From assembly GCF_022812285.1 (NCBI RefSeq), contig NZ_CP093300.1, positions 992,001 to 1,056,000 on the forward strand: 64,000 bases of DNA, given 5' to 3'. The notes beneath the pieces are model-generated. The model was not told the DNA's origin. It made no database searches and saw nothing but the letters and a program-made list of their open reading frames with translations. A program made the translations under genes and the position numbers. The DNA comes from Alkalihalobacillus sp. LMS39 (GTDB lineage Bacteria; Bacillota; Bacilli; Bacillales; Bacillaceae_F). Positions 18,934 through 53,648 of this stretch are shown piece after piece (the first letter of the stretch is position 1; each line of letters begins with the position of its first letter).

Positions 18934-19112
18934 CGGACATAGGATCCGTTATTTTCACATTTTCAGCCAATATTGAAGTTGTTTCGGACATGTGTTCCGT
19001 TATTTCATAAAACCGAGTAAGGAAACTCAGTGAACTGCTAAGATAATGGAACAGATGTCCGCAAGAGTTTGAAAACAAGCAACAACAGCAAAAATAACGG
19101 AACAGATGTCCG
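18934..19112. repeat. 179-bp four-box dispersed element, copy 1
   Basis: Boxes are at 18934-18948 (forward), 18985-18999 (forward), 19047-19061 (reverse) and 19098-19112 (reverse). The consensus forward box is CGGACATCTGTTCCG. The first box carries a divergent centre (ATAGGAT). Start-to-start spacings are 51, 62 and 51. The copy lies in the 416-base gap after sspE, beyond its terminator. No gene is seen in the gap. Confidence 0.85.
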
Positions 19113-28716: not shown

Positions 28717-28895
28717 CGGACATCTGTTCCGTTATTCCGCTAAAAAACATAGATTTAAGAATGCTATCGGTCATGTGTTCCGCTATTTACCTAAAAAGCA
28801 CCGATCCTCAGTGCTGAAAGGGAATATAGCGGAACGTATGTCCGATAAGTTTTATAAAAGGTGGTTTTTTCAATGAATAACGGAACAGATGTCCG
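28717..28895. repeat. 179-bp four-box dispersed element, copy 3
   Basis: Boxes are at 28717-28731 and 28768-28782 (forward), 28830-28844 and 28881-28895 (reverse), with spacings 51, 62 and 51. It lies between the convergent DUF2812 and ygaE genes. The second box runs into TTCCGCTATTTAC (28778-28790), the exact 13-nt sequence specified by the candidate guide RNA of the IS at 33038-34777; this copy is unoccupied. Confidence 0.9.
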
Positions 28896-33008: not shown

Positions 33009-33042
33009 AATGAAATTCCGTTCGGACATCTATTCCGCTGAT

Positions 33043-33055
33043 ATGAACAAAACTG
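33043..33055. repeat. IS sub-terminal inverted repeat, left
   Basis: ATGAACAAAACTG, exact reverse complement of 34760-34772; three bases (GAT) separate it from the CT core. Confidence 0.85.
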
Positions 33056-33172
33056 TCAAGTTCCCCCCACTTTTTTACGTTTTTGGGCAACTTTAATAAA
33101 AGAACCTTGTTGCTTCTTTTTTTAGATTAACCAATCTGGTTAGACTATTTCCTTCGACCTTAACAACTCCCA

Positions 33173-33229
33173 CTCAATTGGACGATAGGTTGTCAAGCGC
33201 TTTCCTTGACGAGCTATCGTCCAATTGAG
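33173..33229. repeat. Long perfect hairpin in the IS non-coding end
   Basis: Arms CTCAATTGGACGATAG (33173-33188) and CTATCGTCCAATTGAG (33214-33229) are perfectly complementary over 16 bp. Inside, GTCAAG (33192-33197) pairs with CTTGAC (33205-33210). It lies between the candidate guide RNA and the left IS end and may end or protect the RNA, or act at the DNA level. Confidence 0.8.
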
Positions 33230-33284
33230 ATGCTGTAAAGAAGAGAAGGAAGGGTAAGCACACGGCACGAAGGCAAAATATTTT

Positions 33285-33467
33285 TAACACCGGTTGGCAT
33301 TCTGATATACGTGGATTCACACAATTTATAATCCGTCTAGAGGCCTTTCACTAACTATTTACGTGCATTCACCTTGTAGAAGGCTAGCACAAGCGGAACT
33401 CGTGAATTATCCTCAACGGTTTTTTACTTTGCCTTCGAGCCCTACTCTTATCCTTATTGGGCAAGTT
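33285..33467 (-). ncRNA. Candidate bridge RNA / seekRNA of the IS110-family element
   Basis: Read on the minus strand 5'->3': a stem-loop (33466-33426, ACTTGCC/GGCAAAGT with inner CCC/GGG); then a loop closed by TTCAC/GTGAA (33406-33402/33351-33347) with an apical stem GTGC/GCAC and inner CCTT/AAGG. The 5' side of this loop reads TTCCGCT (33398-33392) and the 3' side GTAAATAG (33362-33355). These match the left and right halves of the occupied target around the CT core (7/7 and 7/8). Next comes a loop whose 3' side (33310-33302, GTATATCAG) and 5' side (33332-33324, ATTATAAAT) match the two IS ends (7/9 each). Order and length fit known IS110-family guide RNAs. The 5' and 3' limits are estimates. 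Confidence 0.6.
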
Positions 33468-33533
33468 ACTTACTATTAGTTTTTATATTTATGAAATCCT
33501 AATGTCAATGGGTTCTAACAATGAAAAACCTAG

Positions 33534-34661
33534 TTACCTCCGGCAACTTATTTTAGGTGTATCTTCTATCTCTTGTGCAATAGCCCAAATAAATCCTGCT
33601 AATTCTCTGGCAACAGCTGCGATGGCTGTTTTGCTTGATTTCCCACGTGACAATAAACGGAAGAATTTTTTGTGTAACCTTTGTTGAGCTTTCCAGGATA
33701 TCGATTGAACAGACCCTGGTTGTCCATCTTGTCTTTTTTTTAATCGATCTCTAACTGCTGGTTGATATCGATAACTCCATGCGGACTCTACTAGTAATCG
33801 ACGAACATGAGCATTTCCTGTTTTTGTGAGACTTCCTTGCTTGCGAATTCCACCACTAGAGCTTTCACTTGGAATGAGCCCAGTATAGGCCATGAGTTGT
33901 TTTGGACTCCTAAAACGTTTGAATGATCCGATTTCTGCCACTAAACTTGTTGCTGTAATTGTCGCTACCCCACGCAAGCATTGAAGCGCTTGAATCATTG
34001 GGGCGTGAACGCCTTCTGTTGCCTGTACTTCTATTTCAGCTTCTAATCGTTTTAGTCGCTGTTCTACTTCCTGTAGGTTCTGTAGATATTCTTGAAAAGC
34101 TATTCGTAGAGTAGAATATTCGAATTTTAGTGTATGAATCCATTCCCGATATTTAGAAGACCAATTTCTCCCCACTCCTTCCGGAGGGCGAATGTTATAG
34201 CGAAGAAGGAGTTTGGTAATGCGATGCTTGACTCGTAATTCATCTTCTTTCGCATCTTCTCGTGCTCGCACTAAATCACGTAAAGCTTCATCTTCTTTAG
34301 TCGGTATATAAATAGATGTCAACTCTCCTGCTCGAAATAGCTGTGCCAAACGAATGGCGTCTCTCTTGTCCGTTTTAACACGGTCTCCTGGTCTCTGAGG
34401 GATAAGGCCTGGCGCAATCACTTCGCACTCAATTCCTAAGGTTAACAAGAAGCGATAGATTGGATAGCCCGTAGGACCAGCTTCATAACAGACTTTTAAG
34501 TCTTCAGGATTTCCTAACGTTTTCATTAATTTTCGAATAGCCTCTGGAGTATTTGGAATCTCCCCACGATACCATGGCTTTTCTCTACCTGGGTATGCAA
34601 TTGCAACTGCAATATTTTCCTTAGACACGTCTAAACCTACATATTTTGTGTTATCATTCAT
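33534..34661 (-). CDS. IS110 family DEDD transposase
   Basis: A 375-residue recombinase. The N-terminal RuvC-like DEDD domain has Asp11 (YVGLDVSKE), Glu60 (VCYEAGPTGY), Asp98 and Asp101 (TDKRDAIRLA). The C-terminal Tnp20 domain begins near residue 225 (LQCLRGVATITATSLVAEIG), with the catalytic serine in the cluster 265-269 (GLIPSESSSGGIRKQG). AAGGAGC lies eight bases before the ATG. The frame is intact, so the element may be active. The enzyme is expected to form a complex with the RNA described at 33285-33467 and to recombine at CT. Confidence 0.93.
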   Translation of the reverse strand: MNDNTKYVGLDVSKENIAVAIAYPGREKPWYRGEIPNTPEAIRKLMKTLGNPEDLKVCYEAGPTGYPIYRFLLTLGIECEVIAPGLIPQRPGDRVKTDKRDAIRLAQLFRAGELTSIYIPTKEDEALRDLVRAREDAKEDELRVKHRITKLLLRYNIRPPEGVGRNWSSKYREWIHTLKFEYSTLRIAFQEYLQNLQEVEQRLKRLEAEIEVQATEGVHAPMIQALQCLRGVATITATSLVAEIGSFKRFRSPKQLMAYTGLIPSESSSGGIRKQGSLTKTGNAHVRRLLVESAWSYRYQPAVRDRLKKRQDGQPGSVQSISWKAQQRLHKKFFRLLSRGKSSKTAIAAVARELAGFIWAIAQEIEDTPKISCRR

Positions 34662-34759
34662 AGTAATGGCTCCTTTTCGTAATGTAGCTCTGATTTTGGT
34701 TTTTTACTTTTCCAGTAAACATTCTAACCAAATTAATCTACGATTTACGAGTAAGGGGC

Positions 34760-34772
34760 CAGTTTTGTTCAT
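34760..34772. repeat. IS sub-terminal inverted repeat, right
   Basis: CAGTTTTGTTCAT, reverse complement of 33043-33055; five bases (GATAA) separate it from the CT core. Confidence 0.85.
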
Positions 34773-34968
34773 GATAACTATTTTCATAAAAACATAAGGT
34801 TTTCAATTTCTATCGGACATCTGTTCCGTTAATTCAGCAAAATTCACTACAAATACTGCTGATAAGGCTAAATAGCGGAACAGATGTCCGTACGGTTTTC
34901 AAAAAAGGCGATTTTAGTGAATATAACGGAACAAATGTCCGAACAGGAGTAAGAGGAGGGAAGAGAAC

Positions 34969-41580: not shown

Positions 41581-41759
41581 CGGACATACGTTCCGCTACT
41601 TATACAAAAAACTATGTTTTTCCAATGCTAACGGACGTCTATTCCGCTACTGGCCAAATTCTAGCTTTAGAACTAGCTGAAAAGGCGAAATAGCGGAATA
41701 GATGTCCGAAAAAATTGAAATCGGGGTGTTTTTTGCGGGAATAACGGAACAGATGTCCG
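41581..41759. repeat. 179-bp four-box dispersed element, copy 5
   Basis: Boxes are at 41581-41595 and 41632-41646 (forward), 41694-41708 and 41745-41759 (reverse), with spacings 51, 62 and 51. The second and third boxes share the variant ATTCCG/CGGAAT instead of GTTCCG/CGGAAC, so the change is matched on both arms. It lies between convergent genes. Confidence 0.9.
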
Positions 41760-49273: not shown

Positions 49274-49402
49274 CGGACATTTGTTCCGTTATATGTTGAA
49301 AAGAAGAGGTATTGACCACCGATCTTTAATAACTAACGGAACAGATGTCCGTTAGTAATTGAAAAAGGCTTGTTTTGGATGAAATAGCGGAATAAATGTC
49401 CG
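49274..49402. repeat. Four-box dispersed element, copy 6 (first box missing)
   Basis: Boxes are at 49274-49288 (forward), 49337-49351 and 49388-49402 (reverse), with spacings 63 and 51. The place where the first box would start (49223) is the stop codon of the preceding gene, so this copy is truncated against the gene end. Confidence 0.85.
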
Positions 49403-51404: not shown

Positions 51405-51584
51405 CGGACATATATTCCGCTATTTTAGTAAAAATGCTTGTTTTTCAAATGCTATCGGACATCTGTTCCGTTAATTCGTTAAAACAAGCAAAGATTACTA
51501 GTGAAATTGGGAAAATAGCGGAACGGATGTCCGTAATGTTTTCAAAATCGGTTGTTTTGGTGTAAATAGCGGAATAGATGTCCG
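51405..51584. repeat. Four-box dispersed element, copy 7
   Basis: Boxes are at 51405-51419 and 51456-51470 (forward), 51519-51533 and 51570-51584 (reverse), with spacings 51, 63 and 51. The outer pair shares ATTCCG/CGGAAT and the inner pair GTTCCG/CGGAAC, so variants match between first and fourth, and second and third boxes. Confidence 0.9.
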
Positions 51585-53469: not shown

Positions 53470-53648
53470 CGGACACCTGTTCCGCTATTCACAAGAAAAC
53501 ATCGATTTTTAAAATGCTATCGGACATCTGTTCCGTTACTCTCTTAAAAAGAGGCACGAAACTAAGCAGAAAGTAGAAATAGCGGAACAAATGTCCGATA
53601 GCTTTGGAAAATCGCCCAATTTGCTAAATATAACGGAACAGATGTCCG
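53470..53648. repeat. 179-bp four-box dispersed element, copy 8
   Basis: Boxes are at 53470-53484 and 53521-53535 (forward), 53583-53597 and 53634-53648 (reverse), with spacings 51, 62 and 51. The 36-base spacer between the first two boxes ends CGATTTTTAAAATGCTAT, and that between the last two begins ATAGCTTTGGAAAATCG, so the arms pair beyond the boxes. It lies between convergent DUF421 and glutamate synthase genes. Confidence 0.9.

What the first reader, a model, noticed from the sequence alone, without database searches (positions are those of the whole stretch)
33285..33467. Candidate bridge RNA/seekRNA whose guides match the occupied target
Seen: downstream of the IS110-type transposase, on its strand, an internal loop is closed by TTCAC/GTGAA and carries an apical GTGC/GCAC stem. 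One side reads TTCCGCT, the other GTAAATAG. The target rebuilt from the flanks is TTCCG-CT-ATTTTC: the first guide matches 7 of 7 and the complement of the second matches 7 of 8. Known: IS110-family recombinases use a structured RNA with a target loop of two guides flanking an apical stem, and in IS1111 types it lies downstream of the transposase gene. Inference: this is the functional guide RNA.
Basis: partly seen in the sequence, partly recalled or inferred. Interest (0 to 1): 0.9.

Follow-up and report, generated by a model that had tools for sequence, protein, structure and literature searches.

The report
Guide RNA of a jumping gene
A small mobile DNA element in this bacterium carries a folded RNA whose two short guide segments spell out the very site it sits in, a repeat scattered across the host genome; this is a clear new example of a recently discovered kind of RNA-guided jumping gene rather than a new kind.

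Summary
On the minus strand, downstream of an IS110-family transposase (33534-34661), 184 nt (33442-33259) fold into a closing stem, a target loop between UUCAC/GUGAA and an apical GUGC/GCAC stem, and a donor multiloop (z -4.33). The stems hold across 37 related RNAs. In 34 distinct RNAs the guides match their own insertion sites far better than each other's (left 6.50 of 7 against 4.64 shuffled; right 3.65 of 5 against 1.47; 0 of 20,000 shuffles), also with one element per left target (26). Donor guides follow the element's ends in relatives. Joining the flanks restores the 51/61/51 spacing of a palindromic host repeat whose TTCCGCTATTT occurs 274 times in the genome against 10 for the control. 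Five junctions of a near-identical element in A. bogoriensis lie at the same target. So: an IS1111-type element with a seekRNA/bridge RNA aimed at a REP-like repeat. It is a known kind; expression and activity are untested. One correction: the second guide's '7 of 8' includes three family-invariant letters, and its mismatch falls where relatives match only at chance level (7 of 34).

The parts
33040..34779 (-). whole insertion sequence, 1,740 bp, with the CT core counted at its right (+ strand) end
   Evidence: flank and repeat geometry; sTIRs
33534..34661 (-). IS110-family DEDD transposase, 375 aa; D11, E60, D98, D101; GLIPSESSSG motif at 261
   Evidence: PF01548 1.7e-21 and PF02371 2e-21; NF033542 1.4e-78, above cut-off; IS621 and ISCro4 structures 8wt6 and 9t56; residue positions, catalytic roles by analogy (recalled)
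33259..33442 (-). seekRNA/bridge RNA, as far as it is conserved and folds; true transcript ends unknown
   Evidence: fold z -4.33; alignment of 37; pair counts
33425..33441 (-). 5' arm of the closing stem P1 (pairs with about 33264-33280)
   Evidence: helix 1, 94.6% of cells paired, 7 of 16 pairs with changes on both sides
33402..33406 (-). UUCAC, 5' arm of the stem closing the target loop (partner 33347-33351)
   Evidence: helix 4: 84.9% of cells paired, 4 of 5 pairs with changes on both sides
33392..33398 (-). left target guide TTCCGCT
   Evidence: 7 of 7 to the flank at 33033-33039
33363..33390 (-). apical hairpin (GUGC...GCAC) between the two target guides
   Evidence: helix 5: 98.9% of cells paired, 3 of 5 pairs with changes on both sides
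33355..33362 (-). right target guide GTAAATAG (informative part AAAT plus core AG)
   Evidence: 7 of 8 to the flank at 34778-34785
33324..33331 (-). left donor guide region (window TTATAAAT; GATAAAAT in many relatives)
   Evidence: resembles the element end GATAACT and changes with it in relatives; weak in the window itself, ATAA plus scattered letters
33302..33308 (-). right donor guide ATATCAG
   Evidence: 7 of 7 to the element's tnp-distal end; ATAGCAG in both places in L064, L065, L066, L072
33043..33055 (+). subterminal inverted repeat ATGAACAAAACTG, 3 bp from the end
34760..34772 (+). subterminal inverted repeat CAGTTTTGTTCAT, 7 bp (with the core) from the end
33054..33059 (-). TTGACA, -35-like half of a promoter that would form only in the circle
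   Evidence: TTGACA-17-TATCAT across the joined ends; 1 of 5,000 shuffles of that junction scores as high
34771..34776 (-). TATCAT, -10-like half of the circle-junction promoter
33024..33039 (+). left part of the interrupted host repeat unit (GGACATCTATTCCGCT)
34780..34940 (+). rest of the interrupted host repeat, units at 34815, 34876 and 34927

Best explanation
This is an IS110-family insertion sequence of IS1111-type layout. Its 3' non-coding region encodes a bridge RNA (seekRNA). The target loop carries two guides: TTCCGCT pairs with one strand of the left half-site and (GT)AAATAG with the other strand of the right half-site, sharing the CT core. The donor multiloop carries two guides for the element's own two ends. 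The DEDD transposase with this RNA would excise the element as a circle, whose joined ends build a promoter, and insert it at TTCCG-CT-ATTT, a site supplied hundreds of times by a palindromic host repeat. Shown: anatomy, conserved fold, own-guide/own-target matching across relatives, exact site in the repeat, same target for near-identical copies in another species. Inferred from published work on ISEc11, ISPa11, ISKpn4 and IS621: transcription, binding to the transposase, circle formation and RNA-directed insertion.
For: Transposase family. 13-bp sTIRs 3 and 7 bp from the ends, and 494 bp of non-coding DNA downstream against 118 bp upstream. RNA fold z -4.33. 37 RNAs: 83.9% of cells paired, 27 of 49 pairs with two-sided changes, 0 of 500 shuffles as good on four of five measures; target-loop and apical stems both compensated. 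Guides against own targets in 34 distinct RNAs, 0 of 20,000 shuffles; with one element per left target, 26 elements, left 6.35 against 4.53 and right 3.77 against 1.62, again 0 of 20,000. Donor guides follow the ends: right ATATCAG/ATAGCAG, left GATAA/ATGA/CATAA. A. bogoriensis, 99% identical over the 310-343 bp held at each end: 3 of 3 3'-junctions read AGCGGAACANNTGTCCG and 2 of 2 5'-junctions end AATAG. Rebuilt site restores the 51/61/51 repeat. Target 274 against 10 in the own genome and 218 against 9 in A. bogoriensis, but 14 against 11, 12 against 9 and 10 against 10 in three hosts of more distant relatives. Circle-junction promoter: 35 of 36 joined ends score at least 10 of 12 hexamer letters with a 17- or 18-base spacer; the window's, 11 of 12, is reached by 1 of 5,000 shuffles of it. 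Published model: PMC11187229 (abstract and sections 6, 8, 9, 13 read), PMC11208160 (passages read).
Against: No expression, binding or transposition data. Rfam has no model for it. In one search, 5 of 34 elements match poorly on the left (5 of 7 or less: L012, L040, L042, L059, L064); for 8 of 34 (L008, L032, L034, L036, L040, L054, L059, L064) at least one foreign target scores higher than their own. The two G690 copies, with the same guide letters, sit at partly different left sites (4 and 6 of 7). The shuffles do not keep relatedness. The window's left donor guide is weaker than its relatives'. Only one copy exists in a genome with 274 core sites. The guides of the A. bogoriensis copies are cut off by contig ends, and its five junctions may belong to as few as three insertions.
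Confidence: 0.95

Rival explanations
1. The element is dead: the RNA and guides are a fossil of a once active IS1111-type element.
For: Single copy despite 274 core sites; weaker left donor guide than in relatives.
Against: Intact 375-aa frame with both domains and the motif; perfect sTIRs; intact RNA fold; near-identical copies at several sites in another species point to recent spread.
Confidence: 0.2
2. The guides resemble the flanks only because the element and the host share a repeat: the element picked up a piece of the repeat, and insertion is guided by protein or DNA structure.
For: The target is a palindromic host repeat of very high copy number.
Against: The matches lie on the two sides of one loop, in the order of known seekRNAs, and in relatives the same loop positions match quite different sites. 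The closing and apical stems are kept by compensatory changes.
Confidence: 0.02
3. The structure is a cis-acting regulatory or terminator element of the transposase mRNA, not a trans-acting guide.
For: It lies just downstream of the gene, and a terminator-like site and a long hairpin lie nearby.
Against: A regulatory hairpin has no reason to follow the flanking DNA of each element or the element's ends.
Confidence: 0.02

Closest known systems
seekRNAs of IS1111-family elements ISEc11, ISPa11, ISKpn4, ISPst6 (PMC11187229; abstract and sections 6, 8, 9, 13 read)
   Same: Downstream non-coding region, sTIRs, GL-P----SG motif, two short guides for the two target strands with the top-strand match first, promoter across the joined ends; ISPa11 likewise targets a REP.
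   Different: Different sequence, host and target (TTCCG-CT-ATTT); transposase 375 aa rather than the 330-350 aa described for the group; not tested in the laboratory.
IS621 bridge RNA (PMC11208160, passages read; structures 8wt6 and others)
   Same: Target loop with left and right guides, donor guides, REP-like target; CT core (recalled).
   Different: The IS110 group, with IS621, has the RNA upstream of the gene and only 2-3 bp sTIRs; here the RNA is downstream, the sTIRs are 13 bp, and the donor guides lie in a multiloop, as that paper reports for many IS1111 orthologues.
The near-identical element in Alkalihalobacillus bogoriensis ATCC BAA-922 (L020, L021, L077-L081)
   Same: 99% identical over the 310-343 bp held at each end; same target, next to units of the same repeat, at all five junctions.
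   Different: At least three insertions rather than one; its guide letters are missing at contig ends.

Membership tests
IS110 family (broad) | DEDD_Tnp_IS110 and Transposase_20 domains | tested here: met
   PF01548 and PF02371 above cut-off; NF033542 above cut-off
IS1111 group | subterminal inverted repeats of 7-17 bp | tested here: met
   13 bp perfect, 3 and 7 bp from the ends
IS1111 group | longer non-coding region downstream of tnp | tested here: met
   494 bp downstream, 118 bp upstream
IS1111 group | GL-P----S(T)G motif in the C-terminal domain | tested here: met
   GLIPSESSSG at residue 261
IS1111 group | transposase length 330-350 aa (a described spread, not a definition; PMC11187229 section 6) | tested here: not met
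   375 aa
IS1111 group | position with IS1111 members in a transposase tree | not tested
   no ISfinder reference set on hand; placement rests on anatomy only
seekRNA / bridge RNA | structured RNA with a target loop of two guides around an apical stem | tested here: met
seekRNA / bridge RNA | guides complementary to opposite strands of the own target, top-strand match first (IS1111 order) | tested here: met
seekRNA / bridge RNA | donor guides matching the element's ends | tested here: met
   right donor guide 7 of 7; left donor guide clear in many relatives, weak in the window copy
seekRNA / bridge RNA | RNA is made, binds the transposase and is needed for transposition | not testable with these tools
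   needs RNA sequencing and transposition assays
Rfam families | match to a curated covariance model | tested here: not met
   0 matches at gathering score in the window; three microRNA-family hits at E 0.33-0.53, far below gathering scores, near the element

The most novel reading that the evidence does not exclude
The guide is under selection to follow the host's own dispersed repeat, so that each lineage's element is tuned to a safe intergenic niche, and the left and right core letters of the guide can change separately. In L009, L062 and L073 the left guide and left junction read TT while the right guide and junction keep CT, which would mean recombination across unlike target and donor cores.
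Probability: 0.25. Interest if true: 0.5.

Novelty: new member of a known kind. Interest (0 to 1): 0.35.

Why it matters
Bridge RNA/seekRNA systems are studied as programmable recombinases. This family supplies 34 distinct natural RNAs with their occupied targets, with a conserved scaffold and freely varying guides. It shows which guide positions carry information (in the right guide four letters plus the core; the outermost letter does not) and gives a case, together with A. bogoriensis, in which the target is a host repeat present in hundreds of copies. It does not change the known picture of how these elements work.

Tried and rejected
Rfam by gathering score and by E-value gave no usable family. 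Plasmid DNA search found 3 records with weak matches, the best 44% cover at 66% identity; phage records gave 15 distant transposases, all under 60% identity. The own genome has no second copy; six other matches are distant IS110 proteins at 24-28% identity. None of the 2 other same-genus genomes (E up to 1e-60) and none of the 6 other same-family genomes (E up to 1e-100) held the element, so there is no true empty site in a close relative: the orthologous neighbour gene in G002 starts 376 bases from a contig start, behind other sequence. The empty site therefore rests on the repeat geometry. A promoter inside the inserted copy was looked for and not found above chance (3 against a mean of 4.3 in shuffles). 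A first script searched unoriented loci and was redone; an alignment of whole downstream regions was of no use. Of the five genomes examined, only the two hosts of the near-identical element have the target in excess. That hosts' repeats and guides evolve together is only hinted at (L009 host: TTCCGTTATTT 34 against 15 control, TTCCGCTATTT 12 against 9).

Rows dropped: of the 76 loci, I took 64 into the guide analysis; L002-L007 (other IS110 proteins) and the partial matches L019, L022, L023, L044, L049, L053 were left out. One search read 45 of the 64; 19 failed (RNA pattern not found, or flank or RNA cut by a contig end; at least L013 has an RNA that my pattern missed). Four of the 45 were left out for the 5' flank (L029 has an N; L050, L065, L068 lack it), leaving 41, of which 34 had distinct RNAs; the first copy of each was scored, and the 41 copies (means 6.59 and 3.59). 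The left match is the best over a 32-base stretch, for own and foreign targets alike. The structure was taken from the window's fold, with one hairpin replaced by the alignment's consensus, so it leans towards the window. Papers other than PMC11187229 and PMC11208160 were seen only in search listings; I did not search the literature for this host repeat's sequence or for this element by name. No ISfinder comparison was possible.

Full report
What was checked. The open frame 33534-34661 (-) encodes a 375-aa protein with the two domains of IS110-family transposases, above the NCBIfam cut-off for 'IS110 family RNA-guided transposase', and related to the solved IS621 and ISCro4 recombinases over its C-terminal part.

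Element and ends. A 13-bp perfect inverted repeat (ATGAACAAAACTG) lies 3 bp from one end and 7 bp from the other, counting the core. The element is 33040-34779, 1,740 bp, with 494 bp of non-coding DNA downstream of the gene and 118 bp upstream. Taking it out joins TTCCGCT to ATTTTC. Support for these ends, independent of the guides, comes from the host: GGACATNTNTTCCG occurs 26 times in the window with up to one mismatch (0.27 expected). Four other places show four such units, two forward and two reversed, spaced 51, 61 (or 62) and 51; two more places show three units with the matching 61 or 62 and 51. After joining the flanks, the interrupted set shows exactly 51, 61 and 51. So the element sits inside the first unit of such a repeat.

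RNA. The 184 nt at 33442-33259 (-) fold at -58.2 kcal/mol, z -4.33, no shuffle as low. With the window's structure, 83.9% of cells pair (77.3% in shuffles; 37-48% when slid), 27 of 49 pairs show two-sided changes, and the covariation score is 0.258 against 0.148 (0 of 500 shuffles); one of five measures, further pair types, is not above shuffles (155 of 500). These shuffles do not keep relatedness. The stem closing the target loop (A-U 21, U-A 12, G-C 4 at one pair) and the apical stem (G-C 24, A-U 12 at one pair) are kept by compensation. RNAalifold finds 29 pairs, 15 with two-sided changes. The 3'-most hairpin of the window's fold (helix 8) is poorly kept, 57.7%.

Guides against targets. From 64 loci, 45 gave an RNA loop by pattern, 41 had usable flanks on both sides, and 34 of these had distinct RNAs. 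The left guide matches its own flank in 6.50 of 7 letters on average (24 of 34 perfect), against 4.64 with targets dealt out at random; the right guide, core left out, in 3.65 of 5 against 1.47; 0 of 20,000 shuffles reach either value. Keeping only one element per left target (26) gives 6.35 against 4.53 and 3.77 against 1.62, again 0 of 20,000. For the window the own target scores highest, with no tie. Results the other way: 5 of 34 have a left match of 5 or fewer, and for 8 of 34 some other target scores higher. In the right guide the outermost of seven letters matches in 7 of 34, the next four in 25, 28, 30 and 34, and the two core letters in 34 (the core is also part of the pattern used to find the end).

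Copies at several sites. In six genomes two or more copies with the same target guides could be read. Five keep one left target: G316 (3 copies read of 4 found), G191 (3 of 3), G660 (3 of 3), G009 (3 of 4) and G252 (2 of 2); their right flanks vary more, for instance 3, 2 and 2 of 5 in G660. In G690 two copies with the same guides sit at left sites matching 4 and 6 of 7, the exception. In G747 two copies differ in guides and in targets; G697 and G737 could not be read with my pattern. In A. bogoriensis a near-identical element (99% over the 310-343 bp held at each end) shows three 3' junctions reading AGCGGAACANNTGTCCG and two 5' junctions ending AATAG, on five contigs, that is at least three insertions: all five carry the window's target next to units of the same repeat. 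TTCCGCTATTT occurs 274 times in the own genome (10 for the reversed control) and 218 times in A. bogoriensis (9), but at control level in three hosts of more distant relatives (14 against 11, 12 against 9, 10 against 10).

Donor guides and promoter. ATATCAG at 33308-33302 equals the element's end next to the 3' flank, and in L064, L065, L066 and L072 both the end and the RNA read ATAGCAG. The left donor guide reads GATAA, ATGA or CATAA in step with the 5' end (GATAACT, TATGACT, CATAACT) in many relatives (read by eye, not scored); in the window it is ATAA only, a weaker fit. Joined ends give TTGACA-17-TATCAT; of 36 elements, 35 score 10 or more of 12 with a spacer of 17 or 18. For the window's junction 1 of 5,000 shuffles scores as high, and no promoter above chance is found inside the inserted copy. 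This agrees with the circle-junction promoter described for ISEc11 (PMC11187229, section 8).

Reading. The anatomy and the order of guides are those published for IS1111-type elements (PMC11187229: abstract, sections 6, 8, 9 and 13 read) and the donor multiloop is as reported for many IS1111 orthologues (PMC11208160, passages read). A REP target is known for ISPa11 (PMC11187229, section 8). The element is therefore a new member of a known kind. Shown here: structure, covariation, target identity. Inferred: transcription, transposase binding, circle, RNA-directed insertion. The subgroup label rests on anatomy; the transposase is longer (375 aa) than the described IS1111 spread and no tree with references was built.

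What may be new. The TT/CT difference between the two junctions of L009, L062 and L073, mirrored in the left guide only, and the possibility that guides track each host's repeat are leads, not results.

Noticed in passing
window 28718-28894, 41582-41758, 51406-51583, 53471-53647 (four units); 18986-19111, 49275-49401 (three units matched); 33024-33039 with 34815-34940 (interrupted): A REP-like palindromic repeat of GGACATNTNTTCCG units, two forward and two reversed, spaced about 51/61/51; 26 unit matches in the window against 0.27 expected, 274 exact TTCCGCTATTT in the genome. Its own function or carrier was not studied.
   Followed up: partly
L009, L062, L073; also L060, L063, L070, L071, L074, L076: The core next to the 3' flank reads TT (in guide sense) while the core at the other end is CT; in L009, L062 and L073 the left guide reads TT as well.
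   Followed up: partly
L027, L029, L032, L034, L036, L037, L045, L047, L050, L052: Several relatives share another left target, GCCTCCT (GAGGCT... in the flank), mostly with CGAG on the other side, inside what looks like another dispersed repeat (CCCCGCAGGC...GAGGCTC), with guides to match.
   Followed up: partly
window 33173-33229: A strong inverted repeat (25-nt arms, 92% complementary, 7-nt loop) between the RNA and the element's end; a similar hairpin with other letters is in L009 and a shortened one in L008 (by eye). Function unknown, perhaps a terminator or a guard of the RNA's 3' end.
   Followed up: partly
window 33040-34779; whole genome: Only one copy of the element although the genome offers 274 core sites.
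   Followed up: no
L002-L007: The same genome holds what look like two other IS110 families, three matches each, distant from this one (24-28% identity).
   Followed up: no
L086 1-375: In a same-genus genome the orthologous neighbour gene has a lone repeat unit upstream and, before it, other sequence that may belong to another mobile element at the contig end.
   Followed up: no
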